Part shown: piece by piece, positions 10,120-23,865 of the stretch
Position numbering within the stretch: the stretch's first letter is position 1
Layout: each line of letters starts with the position of its first letter
From: a virus
Strand: one strand, 5' to 3'
IMG/VR virus record: IMGVR_UViG_3300042540_000693
Span: 1-25,399 of that record
DNA length: 25,399 bases
Program-made: the position numbers and the translations under genes
Notes under the pieces: generated by a model
Databases searched by the model: none
The model's input: the letters and a program-made list of their open reading frames with translations, nothing else
Told to the model about the DNA's origin: nothing

Positions 10120-13100
10120 TCACCGAAACATGAGAACGCGACGGGTGTGGGCGGCTCCGCGGTTCCCTGTGAAGTTCTGTTGGGCGATCTGGCCGGAAAG
10201 CATCTCCTTGGCCTTGTCGATATGCGGGGTGATTTGCTCGCCCCCGAGGAGGATCCCCTTGGTCGCCTCGTAGACCGCTTGGTAGTTGCGGAGATACATT
10301 TTCTCCGAGTCGCTCGTATGCGGCACGAAGCGGCGTTTGGCTAGGATACGAACGACCGGAACCGTCGTCGGTAGGGTAATCCAGTATTTGCGCTTGAGGA
10401 CGTTGTCGGCCGGATCAATCGACTCACCGCGATCGACCGCCCCTTCCCGCCACTTGTCATCGGCCTCCCGGTAGCCCGTGCCGCCCTTGATCCACTCGTT
10501 GAGTCGATCGTGGACCGGCTTGGGATCTCCGTCGAAAGACATGAAAAGAATCGTCTCCACCTCGGCCGGTAGGAAGAACTCGCCCGTGGCGTTCACCGAA
10601 AGGGTATACTCGGCCACTGTGCCGACCCACTTACCGGCCAGCATCAACTGCTCTTCGGCCGCATTGACCATGCGTTTGATCGCCGAGTCCGAGAGCTTGT
10701 AAGCCTCGGGAAGTTCCAGACCGATCCGGCCCCAGTGGTAGCCGAAGGTGTCATTGGCTGAAGCAAGCAACGCTTCACGAGTTGCCCGGCGCGTGCCTTC
10801 GATCTCGGTCATCACATCACGCTCGACCAAGGCGACCGCTTGCTGCTTCAAGGCTGCGGCCACGTCCGACTGCCCCTTCGAAGTGGCGAGGTATGCCTCG
10901 ACGAGCAATTTCTTCTGTTCGTAAGTCGGCGCGGGGACGGTGCCGTTGTATTCCTCACGGCGCTGGACAAAGGCTTGGTGCGTTCCGATTTCCGTCGAGG
11001 CTTGGCCAAGGTAGGTTGTCAGACGCCCCGTCGGGATGGTGACGCCGTCGGGCAGTTCGTTGTGCAAATTGCCTTCATCACCCGCTGCCGCTCGACGCGC
11101 CGCCTCGACCTGGGTCATCAGGTCGCGCTCGATCAACGCTTGCGCTTCGGCTTTGAGGGCCGACGCTGCTTCGATCGCACCAGTTGAGGTCGCGAGATAG
11201 GACTCCACGTATTTTTTCCGCACTTCATAGGTAAAGGGATTGGGTTTGGTTCCACTGGAATAATCCTCACGACGGGCCAAGAAGTCCCAGTGAGTGCCAG
11301 CCTCCGTGGCGGCTTGGCCGAGATAGGTTGTCAGGCGGGAGGTGGAAACTTTCACCCCTTCCGGAAGCTCGTTGTGCAGACGGCCTTCTTCCCCTGCTTC
11401 GCCGCGACGGGTTGCTTCAATCTCAAACATGAGGTCGCGCTCGATCACCGCTTGAGCCTCGGTCTTGAGTGCCGCCGCCACGTCGGGAGCGGCATTGGTC
11501 GCCGCGACATAGGATTCGACCAGCTTCTTGCGGACCTCAAACGGGAAAGGATTCGGCTTGGTGCCGCCGAAGTAATCTTCGCGGCGGGCAAGAAAGTCGT
11601 AATGGGCCGAGGCGTCGAGCGCGGCTTGGGCCAAGTGCTGCGTCAGGCGGGCGGTCGAGATGGCCACGCCATTGGTCAGTTCGTTGTGCAGACGACCCTC
11701 TTCCCCTGCGGCGGCTCGGCGAGCGGCTTCGACTTGCGCCATGAGGTCGCGCTCGATGACGGCCAAGGCTTCCTGCTTTTTCGCTGTGGCCACTTCCACT
11801 GCACCCGTTGCCCCGGCGACATAGCTTTCGACCAAGGACTTGCGGACTTCGTAGGAGAAAGGATTCGGCTTGGTCCCACTGGAGTAATCTTCCCGGCGGG
11901 CCAAGAAATCCCAGTGCGCTCCGGCTTCAGTCGCCGCTTGGGCCAAGTAAGTTGTCATCCGCGCTGTGGAGATTTTCACACCCTCCGGCAATTCGTTGTG
12001 CAGCTTACCCTCTTCCCCTGCTTCCGCACGGCGAGCCGCTTCGACTTGGGCCATGAGGTCGCGCTCGATGACGGCAAACGCCTCCTGCTTGAGGGATGCC
12101 GCCACATCCGGAGCCGCCGTCGCCGTCGCGATGTATGACTCGACTAATTTCTCACGGATCTCAAAAGGGAAAGGGTTCGGCTTGGTGCCGCTGGAATAGT
12201 CCTCACGTCGGGCCAAGAAATCCCAATGCGCTCCGGCATCCGTGGCCGACTGAGTCAGATACTCGTTCATCCGCGAGGTTGGAATCTTCACGCCCTCCGG
12301 CAATTCGTTATGCAGCCGTCCCGCCTCGCCGCCAACCACTCGGCGGGCCGCTTCGATTTCCTGCATCAGGTTGCGCTCGACCAAGGCCAAGGCTTCTTGT
12401 TTCAAAGCCGATGCCGCGTCGACCGCCGCGCTGGTCGTGGCCAAGTAAGACTCAACCAACTTTTTGCGGACTTCGTAGGGGAAAGGACTCGGTGTCGTGC
12501 CGCCCGCATAGTCCTCACGGCGGGAAAGGAAAGAGTAATGGGCCGAGGCTTCGGTCTGGGCCTGAGCGAGATACGTGGTCAGACGTGCCGTCGGGATCTT
12601 TACCCCTTCCGGCAATTCATTGTGAAGCTGACCTTCCGTGCCGCCTGCGGCACGACGCACCGTTTCGACATCATCCATCAAGTCACGCTCGATCAGGGCA
12701 AAGGCTTCCTGCTTGAGCGAAGCGGCGACCTCGGCGGCGGCATTGGCCGTGGCAATGTAGGATTCGACTAGTTTCTTGCGAACTTCGAAGGTGAATGGAT
12801 TTGGTTTGATCCCTGTCGAGTAGTCCTCGCGCCGGGCCAAGAAGTCGTAGTGCAGCGAAGCATCCGAAGCTGCTTGAGAGAGATACTGCGTCATCCGCGC
12901 TGTCGGGATTTTTACCCCGTCCGGAAGCTCATTGTGCAGACGACCTTCCTCACCGGACTGTCCGCGCCGAGTCCGCTCCACGTCGGCCGTCACATTGCGG
13001 TCGATCAATTCCAAGGCTTGTGTCTTGAGCCCCGCACCATCCGCCCCGTTGTCTGCGGCAATGATGGAAAGCGCAAGAAGCCGGACTACTTCGACTGGAA

Positions 13101-13710
13101 GCAGGGAGTCGAATTGCGCGGCATCCGAAGTCAGCGCGGCAAAGGTCAGGCTGGTCTTGGCCTTGTCTTCGCGGCGGCTGACAAAATTGTAGTGATCGAC
13201 CGCCTGCTGGTAAGCCTGGTTGATGTAACTCTTGAGCCGACTTTCTGGGAGCCGATATTGGACGAGCGTCTCCAGACCGATCCGTCCGGTCATACCGCCG
13301 AAGGTGTTCTGCCCGTTTGAGGTGGCCAGTGATTGAAAGGTCGTCCGACGCGCCCGCTCGACTTCATTCATCAAGTTGCGCTCGATGTAGGAATTGGCCT
13401 TGGTCTCCAGCGCGGTGGCCAGTTCCAACTGGTTGTTCTCCTCGCGCCAGAGCGACAAGATCATCGTCTTGGTCGCATCGAGGTTGTCGAGGATGAGGTC
13501 GCCCGTGGTCGGCACGCCGGTCGTGCCACCCGATTGCCAGACGAGCGGCGACTTCTCCAACTCCTCGCGGCGGGAGAGGAAATTGTAGTGATCGATCAAA
13601 CGGCGCTGGGCCTCGTTGATCCGTTGGTCGATGCGCGTCGTATCGGTCACCGCCACGCCATTATCGACGTAGGGTGCCAGCAGATTACGTGCTTCGAGGT
13701 AAGTCGCCAT
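10120..13710 (-). CDS. Giant repeat protein with C-terminal gatekeeper-like domain
   Basis: 1196 aa. Residues 1-1000 are nine copies of one helical module; residues 1001-1196 are a distinct domain. Copies 3-8 (263-886) are each exactly 104 aa with consensus PEGVKIPTARMTTYL, H.DFLARREDY, KPNPFPYEVRKKLVESY and IERDLM.QVEAARR, ending EEGRLHNEL. Copies 1, 2 and 9 are more divergent but keep H..F..RRE and IERN/DVM. The C-terminal domain (PEAYKLSDSAIKRM..., KRRFVPHTSDSEKMYLRNYQ, and KGILLG) is about the length of T7 gp11 and resembles head-tail connector/gatekeeper proteins in its position. I infer a connector whose N-terminal helical unit has been multiplied into a long array, perhaps a ruler, ring or appendage. 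No family hit can be made by eye. The stop TGA overlaps an extended -10-like sequence. Confidence 0.82.
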   Translation of the reverse strand: MATYLEARNLLAPYVDNGVAVTDTTRIDQRINEAQRRLIDHYNFLSRREELEKSPLVWQSGGTTGVPTTGDLILDNLDATKTMILSLWREENNQLELATALETKANSYIERNLMNEVERARRTTFQSLATSNGQNTFGGMTGRIGLETLVQYRLPESRLKSYINQAYQQAVDHYNFVSRREDKAKTSLTFAALTSDAAQFDSLLPVEVVRLLALSIIAADNGADGAGLKTQALELIDRNVTADVERTRRGQSGEEGRLHNELPDGVKIPTARMTQYLSQAASDASLHYDFLARREDYSTGIKPNPFTFEVRKKLVESYIATANAAAEVAASLKQEAFALIERDLMDDVETVRRAAGGTEGQLHNELPEGVKIPTARLTTYLAQAQTEASAHYSFLSRREDYAGGTTPSPFPYEVRKKLVESYLATTSAAVDAASALKQEALALVERNLMQEIEAARRVVGGEAGRLHNELPEGVKIPTSRMNEYLTQSATDAGAHWDFLARREDYSSGTKPNPFPFEIREKLVESYIATATAAPDVAASLKQEAFAVIERDLMAQVEAARRAEAGEEGKLHNELPEGVKISTARMTTYLAQAATEAGAHWDFLARREDYSSGTKPNPFSYEVRKSLVESYVAGATGAVEVATAKKQEALAVIERDLMAQVEAARRAAAGEEGRLHNELTNGVAISTARLTQHLAQAALDASAHYDFLARREDYFGGTKPNPFPFEVRKKLVESYVAATNAAPDVAAALKTEAQAVIERDLMFEIEATRRGEAGEEGRLHNELPEGVKVSTSRLTTYLGQAATEAGTHWDFLARREDYSSGTKPNPFTYEVRKKYVESYLATSTGAIEAASALKAEAQALIERDLMTQVEAARRAAAGDEGNLHNELPDGVTIPTGRLTTYLGQASTEIGTHQAFVQRREEYNGTVPAPTYEQKKLLVEAYLATSKGQSDVAAALKQQAVALVERDVMTEIEGTRRATREALLASANDTFGYHWGRIGLELPEAYKLSDSAIKRMVNAAEEQLMLAGKWVGTVAEYTLSVNATGEFFLPAEVETILFMSFDGDPKPVHDRLNEWIKGGTGYREADDKWREGAVDRGESIDPADNVLKRKYWITLPTTVPVVRILAKRRFVPHTSDSEKMYLRNYQAVYEATKGILLGGEQITPHIDKAKEMLSGQIAQQNFTGNRGAAHTRRVLMFR
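11053..12924 (-). repeat. Six tandem 312-nt repeats in the 1196-aa gene
   Basis: Units run 12924-12613, 12612-12301, 12300-11989, 11988-11677, 11676-11365 and 11364-11053, each exactly 312 nt and in frame (104 codons). Blocks such as the codons for MAQVEAARR and LARREDY are nearly identical between copies while other codons have drifted, so the array is not a sequencing duplication. Three divergent units of the same family flank it: two at 13710-12925 and one at 11052-10711. Confidence 0.92.
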
Positions 13711-20934: not shown

Positions 20935-20945
20935 GCTAGAAATGG

Positions 20946-20996
20946 AGCACCTCTGGCACCCTGGGAGCCGAAGCTCCCAGAGTGATGTGAGGTGCT
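20946..20996 (-). terminator. Two-tier hairpin with UUCG loop after the capsid gene
   Basis: The inner stem CTGGGAGC/GCTCCCAG (8 bp) closes a UUCG tetraloop with C-G closure, the most stable known loop. An outer stem AGCACCTC/GAGGTGCT (8 bp) encloses it. It lies a few bases after the capsid stop and ends about 12 nt before the next ATG. There is no U-run after either stem, so it is not a classical terminator; it may be a partial attenuator, a 3' stabiliser of capsid mRNA or an RNase processing site. Confidence 0.65.
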
Positions 20997-20999
20997 ACC

Positions 21000-22175
21000 T
21001 TAGTAGCAAGCGACGAGGTCGAGAGCGCGAGCGCAGCGTTTGTGGCGAACCACAAAGCCGAGGTCAGGACGCTCCACCTTCGGGCCATACGCGAAGAGTG
21101 CCCGGAAGAACCCTGTATTTCCATCGACGTTGCAGTCGCGGTCAGGGATATTCCGCCAGACGAATTCACCGGTCCAGCTATACTGGGGGTTATACTTCAT
21201 CGGGCTGGCAGCTTTCGGCTTGGGCACAAGAACCTTCAACACGTCAGCGTGATAAATCACGGTGTCGGTGTATTCCGCATTCTTGTAGGCGTCGGACACT
21301 TCCCACTTGTCACCTTTCGTCGTCGGGGTCGACGCGAACGGCTGACGGCGAACCCATGCACCGCCGACGAAGTCGTAACGGGGCGGGAATTCAACCGTGA
21401 AGAAGCGGAAGCCGCGATACACGCCAGACAGACCGGGCGCTCCGAGCATCGGGGACTGGGTCTCCGAACCCTCGTAAGCGTAACGGAAGTCGTCACGGGT
21501 GTTAGCGTCTTGGCGCTTGAGGTCATGGAACGTGAAACGCTCGCCGACTGCGGCATAAATCGGGGTCATCTCGTCAACGCGAGCAAACGGATTCATGCTG
21601 CCGCCATTGTAACCAAGCTGCTGGTAGATCTCTTCGAGGATTCCCCAGGTAAGTTTGGAAGTGGCCGGAGTCGAAGGGAAGACCGAGCTACCAGACGGGA
21701 GGTTCGCCGATGCGACCATTTTGGTGCCGCAAGCGTCGATATACTCGTCCTGATAAGCGTTGGTCCAAACCCATTTCGTGTTCTCGGAAAGAACGCGAAC
21801 GATGTTTTTGACCTGATCTTCGACCTGCCAGGCGAACTGAAGATCGTCCAAACAGATGTCGGGCGAGTTCAGCGCGGCCTTTTTGAGGCTGGTCTGGCGC
21901 AGGGTGATGCCGAAGTTGTCGATGTTCTGACCGGCGACTTGGCACTGACCGCCCGCTTCGCCGTCCGAAGACTCCCATGCACTAAAAGTGACGGGGCTGG
22001 ACGAGAGCGTGCGCTCGTAGATCGGGTAACTATATTCCGTTCCTTGCCCGTCCATCCACTGCTCACGCGGCAGATACTTCAGGTAGAAATCGGAGTTGAT
22101 GATGTTCTTCGAGACATTGTTCCGGATGAGGCCGGCATGTTCCACGAAGAGAGCTTCAATATTATTGCAAGGCAT
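21000..22175 (-). CDS. Major capsid protein (candidate)
   Basis: 391 aa, starting MPCNNIEALFVEHAG and ending LDLVACY. I do not see a family-specific motif. The size, a mixed alpha/beta composition with many aromatic and few charged blocks, the position right after scaffold, a private terminator/tandem-promoter control region and the best ribosome-binding site among the right-hand genes (AGGAG) all fit the major capsid protein, the most abundant virion protein. It has seven cysteines (for example in GGQCQ, DICLDD, DRDCNV and the C-terminal ACY), a rather high number that could allow cross-links. The gene is followed by a strong hairpin. A capsid or other abundant head protein is likely; which fold it has cannot be read by eye. 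Confidence 0.72.
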   Translation of the reverse strand: MPCNNIEALFVEHAGLIRNNVSKNIINSDFYLKYLPREQWMDGQGTEYSYPIYERTLSSSPVTFSAWESSDGEAGGQCQVAGQNIDNFGITLRQTSLKKAALNSPDICLDDLQFAWQVEDQVKNIVRVLSENTKWVWTNAYQDEYIDACGTKMVASANLPSGSSVFPSTPATSKLTWGILEEIYQQLGYNGGSMNPFARVDEMTPIYAAVGERFTFHDLKRQDANTRDDFRYAYEGSETQSPMLGAPGLSGVYRGFRFFTVEFPPRYDFVGGAWVRRQPFASTPTTKGDKWEVSDAYKNAEYTDTVIYHADVLKVLVPKPKAASPMKYNPQYSWTGEFVWRNIPDRDCNVDGNTGFFRALFAYGPKVERPDLGFVVRHKRCARALDLVACY

Positions 22176-22197
22176 AATGCTTGTTTTTCTCCTAATT

Positions 22198-22210
22198 TGT
22201 GGGGTTATTA
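22198..22210 (-). promoter_or_regulatory. Recurrent late element, copy 5 (TAATAACCCCACA)
   Basis: Perfect full-length copy 22 nt before the capsid ATG and directly upstream of the AATTAGGAG ribosome-binding region. It is not at the end of any gene. With the following bases (TTAGGAGA) it is the copy most like the T3 RNA polymerase promoter (AATTAACCCTCACTAAAG...). Confidence 0.6.
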
Positions 22211-22361
22211 CTTCGCCTTGATCGGGAGACGCACATGCGGTCCGAGGCTAGTGACAACACCACGATTTTGCTTTTCTCTTCCCGTCGCGGATCGGGCTTC
22301 CTCGCGAACCTAACTTTCTGATTTCTACCGGATGATTGCCGCTACCCGTAAACGTGAGACT

Positions 22362-22389
22362 AAGATACGGCAGCATAAGGGGTTGTCAA
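22362..22389 (-). promoter_or_regulatory. Sigma70-like promoter P2 upstream of the capsid gene
   Basis: -35 is a perfect TTGACA (22389-22384), the spacer is 16 nt and the -10 is TATCTT (22367-22362; 4 of 6). The predicted start would give a capsid leader of roughly 180 nt. With P1 it forms a tandem pair about 90 nt apart. Confidence 0.55.
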
Positions 22390-22391
22390 AT

Positions 22392-22402
22392 TGTGGGGTT
22401 AT
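22392..22402 (-). promoter_or_regulatory. Recurrent late element, copy 4 (ATAACCCCACA)
   Basis: Exact core copy. Unlike most others it is not attached to a stop codon: it sits in the non-coding gap a few bases upstream of the TTGACA of promoter P2. This shows the element is more than a by-product of gene ends. Confidence 0.55.
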
Positions 22403-22452
22403 GCTTGCTCCCTCATGCAGGACATCGCCGTCACAAAAACTACCGAGAGATT

Positions 22453-22480
22453 GTTATAGATCCGACCACACTTATGTAAA
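22453..22480 (-). promoter_or_regulatory. Sigma70-like promoter P1 upstream of the capsid gene
   Basis: -35 TTTACA (22480-22475) and -10 TATAAC (22458-22453) are each 5 of 6 to consensus, with a 16-nt spacer. It lies just downstream of the scaffold terminator and points toward the capsid gene. Confidence 0.5.
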
Positions 22481-22503
22481 TCTGTAGCCTTTTCTATCCA
22501 CCG

Positions 22504-22540
22504 AAAAATGCAGAGGCGGCTCCCTGGAAGGAACCGCCTC
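22504..22540 (-). terminator. Rho-independent terminator after the scaffold gene
   Basis: On the gene strand the arms GAGGCGGTTCC and GGAGCCGCCTC pair over 11 positions (one G-U wobble) around the 6-nt loop TTCCAG, followed by TGCATTTTT. This is a textbook intrinsic terminator 41 nt after the scaffold stop. It lies upstream of two sigma70-like promoters, so capsid transcription is re-initiated rather than read through. Confidence 0.88.
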
Positions 22541-22581: not shown

Positions 22582-23865
22582 CTAACTAGAGAGCCCCGAT
22601 TTGATGGCGCTGAAAAAGTCTTCATGCTCCACCTTTTCGGCTGTGCCCGAGCCGATGGCCGGATCCGCAGATCCCCCACCCGCGCCGGGTTTGGCGCTCT
22701 GATACTTACCGAGGGTCTTCTGAAGTTCGGCTGTCTTGGCCCAAAGCTGCTGCACCATCCCATAGAGGAAAGGCGAAGCCGCAGCCCGCAGCGCCAACTC
22801 GGCTCGCGCCGTGTCGTTCTCAGCCACGACATTCCAGTCGAGTCCGGTGGCGAACTGCTCGATCTCCCCGATCTTGGCATTCCACACCTCGTCGCCTTCA
22901 CGGCGGCGGAAGAGCGGAGCCTTCTCGGAAACATCGCCCCAGATCTTCTCCAGCGCCCCGCGATACTGCTTCTGGCGGGTCTCGACGAATGCCTTGTTCT
23001 GCTCGGCGTGATGTTCTTGGATCTTCTCCAGGGCCAGCCGCGCATTGTTGCGAACCTTGTTGGCGATGCCTTCGACCTTCTGCCACTCTTCGGCCATGCC
23101 ATAGAATCGGAGACGGTCGCGGTCGTTCATGCCGCTGGCCATATCAACGAGTAGCTCGGTCTGCTTCTCTGGATCGGCTTCGGCAAAGGCGACACGGGCA
23201 TCGGCCTCGCGGAATTCATACTTCTTGGCGAAGGATTCGAGTTGCGCGTTGATCCGTTCACGGGGAACGGCCACCGCATCCTTGAATTCTTTGGTCGCCT
23301 CGACACGGGCGATCTGAAGCTCGCGCTCGTAGGCATCGACCGTCTCCCGCAGTTGCTTGACCTCATCCGGAGCGACATCGGTCGACGGGCGCTTCTCCAG
23401 TTCGGCCACCTTCGCTTCGAGTTCCTCGCGGCGACGGCGCTCCTCTTTGAGAGCCTTGCGCTGCTCGGCCCACTTACGTTTGGCGGCATCGGTCATCGCC
23501 ACATCGACCGGCGGCTCGTCGTCGGCGTCCGGTTTCGGCTCGGCCTTCTTCGGTCCGCCGAGGAGTTCGGCGAGGTCATCGGCCGTGGCGGCTTTCGGAG
23601 GCTCGGCCTCTTCAGTCTTCGCTTCGGCGGCGGGTTCTTTCGCCGCTTCAGGGGCGGCGGTCTTGACGGGTTCTGCGGGGGCTTTGGCCTCCACCTTCGG
23701 TGCCTCGGGCTCTTTGCCCAAGCTGTTGAATGCCTCCGAGAGCGAACGTGCCGCGTCGAAGGTCATGGTGCCGCCAGTCTCGGAAAGTTCCGGAGTGACG
23801 GTTTTGCTTGTTTGATCCGACGCCGTGGCGGACTCGGTTTGAACCGGCGTTTGGTTTTCTGCCAT
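22582..23865 (-). CDS. Capsid scaffolding protein
   Basis: 427 aa, highly charged. Residues about 1-125 are a disordered Ala/Pro/Glu/Lys-rich region (EAPKVEAKAPAEPVK and similar). Residues about 130-200 form a strong coiled coil (KALKEERRRREELEAKVAEL). The rest is helical and charged, ending in a short amphipathic helix (EDFFSAIKSGLSS) of the type that can contact coat protein. Disordered acidic N-terminus, central coiled coil and a position immediately before the capsid gene are the usual marks of phage scaffolding proteins, which guide procapsid assembly and then leave. It is followed by a strong rho-independent terminator, separating its transcript from the capsid gene. No protease motif was seen, so it is not obviously a protease-scaffold fusion. 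The initiator follows a 3-nt gap and lacks a clear Shine-Dalgarno site. Confidence 0.85.
   Translation of the reverse strand: MAENQTPVQTESATASDQTSKTVTPELSETGGTMTFDAARSLSEAFNSLGKEPEAPKVEAKAPAEPVKTAAPEAAKEPAAEAKTEEAEPPKAATADDLAELLGGPKKAEPKPDADDEPPVDVAMTDAAKRKWAEQRKALKEERRRREELEAKVAELEKRPSTDVAPDEVKQLRETVDAYERELQIARVEATKEFKDAVAVPRERINAQLESFAKKYEFREADARVAFAEADPEKQTELLVDMASGMNDRDRLRFYGMAEEWQKVEGIANKVRNNARLALEKIQEHHAEQNKAFVETRQKQYRGALEKIWGDVSEKAPLFRRREGDEVWNAKIGEIEQFATGLDWNVVAENDTARAELALRAAASPFLYGMVQQLWAKTAELQKTLGKYQSAKPGAGGGSADPAIGSGTAEKVEHEDFFSAIKSGLSS

What the first reader, a model, noticed from the sequence alone, without database searches (positions are those of the whole stretch)
22362..22540. 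Terminator followed by two tandem host-type promoters isolates the capsid gene
An 11-bp intrinsic terminator ends the scaffold transcript, and two sigma70-like promoters (both with 16-nt spacers, about 90 nt apart) restart transcription, in between which lies a copy of the recurrent element. The mixture of host-type and phage-type signals in one gap suggests dual control that sets the high capsid:scaffold ratio.
Basis: partly seen in the sequence, partly recalled or inferred. Interest (0 to 1): 0.5.

Follow-up and report, generated by a model that had tools for sequence, protein, structure and literature searches.

The report
Folded RNA leader of phage capsid gene
In a family of uncultured phages the gene for the probable main shell protein has its own start signal, and its RNA appears to begin directly with two knotted folds and to be followed by a long hairpin, which probably keeps this message alive or controls how much shell protein is made.

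Summary
The terminator (22540-22513) and both promoter-like sites are present on the minus strand, but they are unequal. The downstream site P2 (22389-22362) is conserved in position: in 24 of 26 leaders its -10 box ends 6-9 nt before one RNA fold. P1 (22480-22453) lies in a variable insert and is kept in 2 of 26. The terminator is common (14 of 32), not universal. No phage RNA polymerase was found, so 'phage-type' control is unsupported.

A strong hairpin of changing sequence also follows the capsid stop codon in 18 of 18 representatives. Rfam has no match.

Best reading: an expression cassette whose 5'-terminal pseudoknots and 3' hairpin protect or regulate the capsid message. Anatomy is well supported; function is inferred. 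Rivals are autogenous translational control (as in T4 gene 32) and put-like antitermination. That the gene is the capsid gene rests on position, size and gene order; no profile or structure confirmed it.

The parts
22513..22540 (-). Intrinsic terminator after the scaffold-like gene
   Evidence: 12 bp, loop 4, TGCATTTTTC. Analogous hairpins of different sequence in 14 of 32 records against 33 of 1600 random. In the 74-kb relative G002 it is one of two such sites on the late strand, the other being 58 kb away and weaker.
22453..22480 (-). P1, TTTACA-16-TATAAC; weak, in a variable insert
   Evidence: Only the window and L006 keep it; degraded in L024.
22391..22402 (-). Copy of the recurrent element (ATAACCCCACAA) next to the P2 -35 box
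   Evidence: Exact match; read by eye, degenerate versions precede TTGACA in clade A only.
22362..22389 (-). P2, conserved sigma70-type capsid promoter, TTGACA-16-TATCTT
   Evidence: -10 ends 6-9 nt before PK1 in 24 of 26 leaders; predicted +1 about 22355 (inferred).
22329..22354 (-). PK1: H-type pseudoknot [CGTT]ta(CGGGT)[AGCG]gcaatc(ATCCG)
   Evidence: Covariation in 10 representatives: stem 2 28 of 29 Watson-Crick pairs against 11.5 permuted, 25 of 20000 permutations as good (counted over 6 distinct stems); blind finder.
22281..22306 (-). PK2: second H-type pseudoknot [CGCG]aggaag(CCCG)atc[CGCG]a(CGGG)
   Evidence: 12 representatives: stem 2 33 of 35 Watson-Crick pairs against 17.7 permuted, 0 of 20000 (counted over 8 distinct stems).
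22199..22263 (-). Extended hairpin; its 3' strand is the second copy of the element (UAAUAACCCCAC)
   Evidence: Folding of the post-PK2 leader, z below 0 in 22 of 22 (-0.2 to -4.0); pairing kept with changed sequence, e.g. CAGUUAUU/AAUAACUG and CAGUCAUU/AAUGACUG.
22173..22193 (-). Shine-Dalgarno (AGGAG), spacer and ATG
   Evidence: no clear Shine-Dalgarno in clade C, such as L031.
21000..22175 (-). Probable major capsid gene, 391 aa
   Evidence: 51 IMG/VR relatives. No Pfam or PHROGs match, and two poor AlphaFold models: assignment by size and gene order.
20944..20999 (-). Post-capsid two-tier hairpin, about 20-24 bp, with an asymmetric internal loop
   Evidence: Among the most stable 90-nt windows of its strand (4 of 563 as low); hairpin at this place in 18 of 18 representatives, two-tier in 14.
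22582..23865 (-). Scaffold-like gene upstream, 427 aa
   Evidence: no Pfam or PHROGs match; name inferred from position and composition.

Best explanation
This is a capsid-gene expression cassette. A terminator stops incoming transcription, and the host sigma70-type RNA polymerase starts a fresh transcript at P2 with its first nucleotide at or beside the foot of PK1 (about 22355). The 5' end folds at once into two tandem H-type pseudoknots, then an extended hairpin that uses the recurrent element as one strand and ends just before the Shine-Dalgarno and ATG. A long two-tier hairpin follows the stop codon. Most likely mechanism (inferred): the 5'-terminal pseudoknots leave almost no single-stranded 5' end for pyrophosphohydrolase or RNase E/J entry, the extended hairpin keeps the ribosome site open, and the 3' hairpin blocks exonucleases or is a processing site; together they make the capsid message longer-lived than its neighbours. 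The terminator would make sure that capsid messages carry this 5' end. Shown by comparison: promoter position, pseudoknots, extended hairpin, post-capsid hairpin. Inferred: transcription start, stability, dosage, and the name capsid.
For: Promoter-to-fold distance 6-9 nt in 24 of 26 leaders. PK1 and PK2 covariation. In one search the blind finder returned my PK1 (or its 3-bp core) in 6 of 11 leaders, a shifted register with the same stem 2 in 3, other folds in 2 (L035, L036); shuffles as good in 0-16 of 200 for each. The PK1 anchor was found in the window and 50 of 51 loci (L017 is cut off). Extended hairpin, 22 of 22 with z below 0. Post-capsid hairpin, 18 of 18. No second capsid-type copy was seen elsewhere in the records scanned; other descriptor hits were at the random level for most records. 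In the distant relatives L205, L206, L207, L212 and L214 the TTGACA (L206 TTGACG) promoter stands a few nt before a different 5'-terminal stem (read), and L206, L207 and L212 keep an H-type pseudoknot just after it (6, 4 and 2 of 100 shuffles as good). 5' hairpins stabilise bacterial mRNAs and impede RppH (PMC3997798, passages).
Against: No RNA data. Ordinary folding of the whole leader is no better than shuffles (z 0.69), although that program cannot form pseudoknots. L205, L213 and L214 show no clear pseudoknot (28, 13 and 26 of 100 shuffles as good). Pseudoknot segments were placed by hand and the sequences are related, so the permutation counts overstate independence. Stem 1 of both pseudoknots is less convincing (282 and 856 of 20000). 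In clades A and B a U-run follows the post-capsid hairpin (L003, L023, L024, L028), so there it may be a leaky terminator. Clade C lacks a Shine-Dalgarno, so a uniform translational role is unlikely.
Confidence: 0.5

Rival explanations
1. Autogenous translational operator: excess capsid or scaffold protein, or a host ribosomal protein, binds the pseudoknots and shuts off capsid translation, as gp32 does on its own mRNA in T4.
For: Two covarying pseudoknots in the leader of an abundant structural gene. The T4 gene 32 leader pseudoknot lies 67 nt upstream of its start codon and was described in 2010 as perhaps the only viral example in translational autoregulation (PMC3014915, passages).
Against: The pseudoknots lie about 105-180 nt from the ATG in the window; the extended hairpin ends before the Shine-Dalgarno and leaves it open; clade C lacks a Shine-Dalgarno but keeps the pseudoknots. 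Fixed placement at the transcript start is not needed for an operator.
Confidence: 0.25
2. put-like antitermination RNA: the nascent pseudoknots bind the RNA polymerase that made them and carry it through the long late operon.
For: Placed at the promoter of a long structural operon. HK022 putL is a roughly 70-nt RNA of two stem-loops just downstream of PL (PMC9378689, passages).
Against: On the late strand of G002 no strong intrinsic terminator lies between 5128 and 63960, so nothing intrinsic needs reading through. put is not pseudoknotted in the passages read. Rho sites were not examined.
Confidence: 0.1
3. One reading: two tandem promoters under separate host and phage control set the capsid:scaffold ratio.
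For: Both sites exist in the window.
Against: P1 is not conserved and lies in an insert. No phage RNA polymerase found (the control of 43 was empty). The element is mostly beside start codons.
Confidence: 0.06
4. A ligand-binding riboswitch or other metabolite sensor.
For: Compact pseudoknots with an A-rich third loop, G(U/C)AA in most, resemble small riboswitch folds (recalled).
Against: No Rfam match at gathering level or of note at relaxed level; stems vary freely and few loop positions are invariant.
Confidence: 0.06

Closest known systems
T4/T2/RB69 gene 32 mRNA leader
   Same: H-type pseudoknot in a phage mRNA leader upstream of an abundant protein's gene, on an unusually stable mRNA (PMC3014915, passages)
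   Different: One pseudoknot, with repeats over the ribosome site bound by gp32; here two or three tandem pseudoknots that begin at the predicted transcript start, before a capsid gene, with an added hairpin and a post-gene hairpin
5'-terminal stem-loop stabilisers (ompA, papA)
   Same: Structure at the extreme 5' end (PMC3997798, passages and references)
   Different: Simple hairpins; here pseudoknots; no stability measured here
HK022 put RNA
   Same: Structured RNA just behind a sigma70 promoter of a long phage operon
   Different: Early promoters, two stem-loops; no intrinsic terminators to overcome here
T7 gene 10 region (phi10 promoter, leader stem, Tphi, RNase III sites; recalled)
   Same: The capsid gene has its own promoter, leader structure and downstream hairpin
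   Different: Host-type promoter, and the order includes an upstream terminator
Type III toxin-antitoxin RNA (recalled; a review was seen in the listing)
   Same: Tandem pseudoknots
   Different: No toxin gene and no terminator between the pseudoknots and the gene

Membership tests
Sigma70-type promoter | TTGACA / TATAAT-like hexamers 15-19 nt apart, conserved in position | tested here: met
   P2 met; P1 not conserved
Phage single-subunit RNA polymerase promoter | Cognate RNA polymerase gene in the genome | tested here: inconclusive
   0 of 10 records with PF00940, control also empty; no RNA polymerase name among the large ORFs scanned
T4 gene 32-type autoregulatory pseudoknot | H-type pseudoknot in the leader | tested here: met
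   Covariation
T4 gene 32-type autoregulatory pseudoknot | Gene product binds the leader and represses its translation | not testable with these tools
   Needs binding assays
[quoted passage not shown]
   The downstream gene is capsid-like by position; no family match
HK022 put RNA | Immediately downstream of a promoter | tested here: met
HK022 put RNA | Two stem-loops without a pseudoknot | tested here: not met
   Pseudoknots
HK022 put RNA | Suppresses downstream terminators | not testable with these tools
   Only indirect: no intrinsic terminator downstream in G002
Any Rfam 15 family | Match at gathering score | tested here: not met
   0 matches in 8 sources and 0 in 6 distant ones
5'-terminal mRNA stabiliser | Base-paired within a few nt of the 5' end | tested here: met
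   Predicted start only
5'-terminal mRNA stabiliser | Prolongs mRNA half-life | not testable with these tools
   Needs RNA decay assays
RNase III processing site (post-capsid hairpin) | About two turns of duplex with an internal loop | tested here: met
   14 of 18 representatives; the defining feature is recalled
RNase III processing site (post-capsid hairpin) | Cleaved by RNase III | not testable with these tools
   Needs cleavage assay
HK97-fold major capsid protein | HK97 fold | tested here: inconclusive
   AlphaFold pLDDT 33 and 34; no PDB match
Type III toxin-antitoxin | Toxin gene downstream | tested here: not met
   391-aa conserved capsid-like gene

The most novel reading that the evidence does not exclude
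An undescribed class of phage mRNA element: a tandem-pseudoknot '5' cap' that starts at the first transcribed nucleotide of the capsid message, works with a swappable 3' hairpin to set capsid dosage by mRNA lifetime, and is kept although its sequence, and in distant relatives its fold, is replaced.
Probability: 0.35. Interest if true: 0.75.

Novelty: new variant of a known kind. Interest (0 to 1): 0.6.

Why it matters
Capsid protein must far outnumber its neighbours, and few phages are known to do this with mRNA structure. A leader whose pseudoknots begin at the transcript start, found in a family with no match among 50,697 public phage records, would be a testable part for stabilising mRNA, and would make it directly testable whether pseudoknots can serve as 5' caps in bacteria.

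Tried and rejected
Rejected: phage RNA polymerase promoter (no polymerase found, element sits by start codons); type III antitoxin (no toxin gene); group I/II intron in the leader (no Rfam match). Tried without gain: capsid identification by Pfam, PHROGs, PDB sequences and two AlphaFold jobs; relatives in the phage records and in bacterial genomes, none; MAFFT alignment across clades mis-set the pseudoknot arms, so I placed segments by hand; search for paralogous pseudoknots elsewhere, at random level in most records but above the mean in some, e.g. L036 7 against 1.4 and L048 8 against 2.6, with no second capsid-type copy seen. That descriptor also missed the known leader of L010 and L048 themselves, so its silence is weak. 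Papers; no listed paper described a capsid-leader pseudoknot, but the library lacks most subscription journals. The loose terminator and upstream-ORF script picked spurious ORFs and was replaced.

Full report
What the window is. The window is a 25.4-kb phage contig, 58% GC, whose genes of interest lie on the minus strand. The gene at 22175-21000 (391 aa) is the probable major capsid gene and 23865-22582 the probable scaffold gene; neither has a Pfam or PHROGs match, and two AlphaFold runs were too poor to use (pLDDT 33 and 34). A CHAP endolysin lies upstream. The capsid protein has 51 related loci in IMG/VR and more distant ones at 46-55% identity, none among 50,697 phage records, and none in the GTDB genome scan.

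Check of the observation. A consensus scan alone gives no support for the promoters (3 found, 2.9 expected). Comparison does: in 26 leaders the best sigma70-type site within 330 nt of the ATG has its -10 end 6-9 nt before one RNA fold in 24; the exceptions are L018 (3 nt, its runner-up standing at the usual place) and L049 (35 nt, because it carries one more pseudoknot-like unit upstream). In 23 of 26 at most 16 of 200 shuffles score as well; L028, L049 and L036 do not reach that (27, 36, 121). The six distant records give 17, 99, 37, 32, 107 and 5 of 200 (all). P1 occurs as runner-up only in the window and L006. The window's gap holds about 100 nt between terminator and -35 that L008 and L023 lack (the terminator ends 122 nt before the -35 in the window, 22 nt in those). 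P1 lies in that insert.

Terminator. By a strict rule 14 of 32 records have an intrinsic terminator in the 300 nt before P2, against 33 of 1600 random sequences; the sequences differ between lineages. In G002, a 74-kb relative whose leader is identical to the window's, it is the only strong one on the late strand apart from a weaker site at 63960. So the junction is a real but not universal insulator.

The leader RNA. Directly after P2 every family member with enough sequence (the window and 50 of 51 loci; for some of them the anchor among several candidates was chosen by hand) carries a conserved fold. PK1 is [S1]-short loop-(S2)-[S1']-loop, mostly G(U/C)AA or GUUAA-(S2'): for example L039 CGCU ua CGAGU AGCG guaau ACUCG, L028 CGCU ga CUGAA AGCG guaaau UUCAG, L036 UGCC gguu ACAG GGCA guaaau CUGU, L041 CGG ugcu UGCAG CCG guuaaa CUGCA. 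PK2 follows with its own covarying stems. Over 10 (PK1) and 12 (PK2) hand-segmented representatives, the distinct stem-2 pairs have 28 of 29 and 33 of 35 Watson-Crick pairs, where permuted partners give 11.5 and 17.7 (25 and 0 of 20000 permutations reach the observed value); stem 1 is weaker (282 and 856 of 20000). A blind search with fixed geometry recovered my PK1 or its 3-bp core in 6 of 11, a shifted register with the same stem 2 in 3, and other folds in L035 and L036; shuffles as good numbered 0-16 of 200. The sequences are related, so these numbers are not independent probabilities.

The recurrent element. Its capsid-proximal copy (22208-22197) is the 3' strand of an extended hairpin (22263-22199). 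In clade A the pairing partner changes with it: GUGG.GUUGU/AUAAC.CCAC, CAGUUAUU/AAUAACUG, CAGUCAUU/AAUGACUG, UGGUGU.UAUUAC/GUAAUAACGCCA. All 22 leaders tested fold better than the shuffle mean in this part (z -0.2 to -4.0). The other copies lie beside stop and start codons. A looser pattern gave 3-5 copies in three of ten related genomes, one each in two and none in five, all on one strand within each genome and none in the reversed-pattern control. The copy beside P2 is confined to clade A (read by eye). I take it as an intergenic sequence motif, not a phage promoter.

After the gene. In 18 of 18 representatives a strong hairpin follows the capsid stop codon, in 14 of them two-tier with an asymmetric internal loop; sequences differ strongly and the pairing is kept (the stems in 86 were taken from predicted folds, so full pairing there is by construction). 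Most lack a U-tract; L003, L023, L024 and L028 have a U-run close by, so a leaky terminator is possible there. The hairpin ranks within the lowest 4% of windows in 17 of 18; L028 is weaker (32 of 368 windows as low).

Distant relatives. L205, L206, L207 and L212 share a different leader start (ACGAATGGAATAAGGCG in three, a variant in L206) that again begins a few nt after the -10; L206, L207 and L212 then have an H-type pseudoknot whose third loop is UAAU, CAA or UAA (6, 4 and 2 of 100 shuffles as good); L205, L213 and L214 do not show one. The constant feature is structure at the predicted transcript start; L213 is the exception, its first stem standing further downstream by eye.

Mechanism. 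I favour protection and dosage control of the capsid message (confidence 0.5 for the whole statement; the anatomy alone I would put near 0.9). 5' hairpins are known to slow bacterial mRNA decay (PMC3997798, passages). The nearest phage case, T4 gene 32, joins a leader pseudoknot, translational autoregulation and unusual mRNA stability (PMC3014915, passages), so an autogenous operator is the chief rival (0.25). A put-like antiterminator (PMC9378689, passages) is possible, but G002 has no strong intrinsic terminator downstream for it to overcome.

Novelty. No Rfam family matched, and literature searches listed no capsid-leader pseudoknot. I rate it a new variant of a known kind.

Noticed in passing
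L207:3762-3989; similar in L206 from about 3790: Group I intron-like RNA interrupts the capsid gene just after its start (RF00028, E 5e-8, 38 bits, below the gathering score of 50). L206 has similar sequence by eye.
   Followed up: partly
L205, L206, L207, L212 leaders: A second conserved leader motif, ACGCACGAATGGAATAAGGCGT (L206: TGCGCTCGAAGGATAATAAGGCGCA), whose closing stem covaries.
   Followed up: partly
window 25329, 25019, 24168, 22403, 22210, 17413, 10117 (-): Recurrent (T)AATAACC-type motif, mostly beside stop or start codons; function unknown.
   Followed up: partly
window 10787-13385: 1196-aa ORF built of tandem repeats of about 312 nt (family D1).
   Followed up: no
L049 leader: A third pseudoknot-like unit (GACGATGCTTGAGGCGGTAAACTTCAAG) upstream of PK1; its stem 1 is weak.
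   Followed up: partly
L006, L024, L048 insert before P2: Small hairpin AGGACTTC..GAAGTCCT inside the variable insert that also holds P1 in the window and L006.
   Followed up: no
L101:2426-12511: 3361-aa virion-type protein (PHROG 22602, LPD37) in a 74-kb relative that also carries integrase, family A DNA polymerase, primase and a DUF2800 protein.
   Followed up: no
L041 after the capsid gene: Run of about ten AAT repeats between the post-capsid hairpin and the next gene.
   Followed up: no
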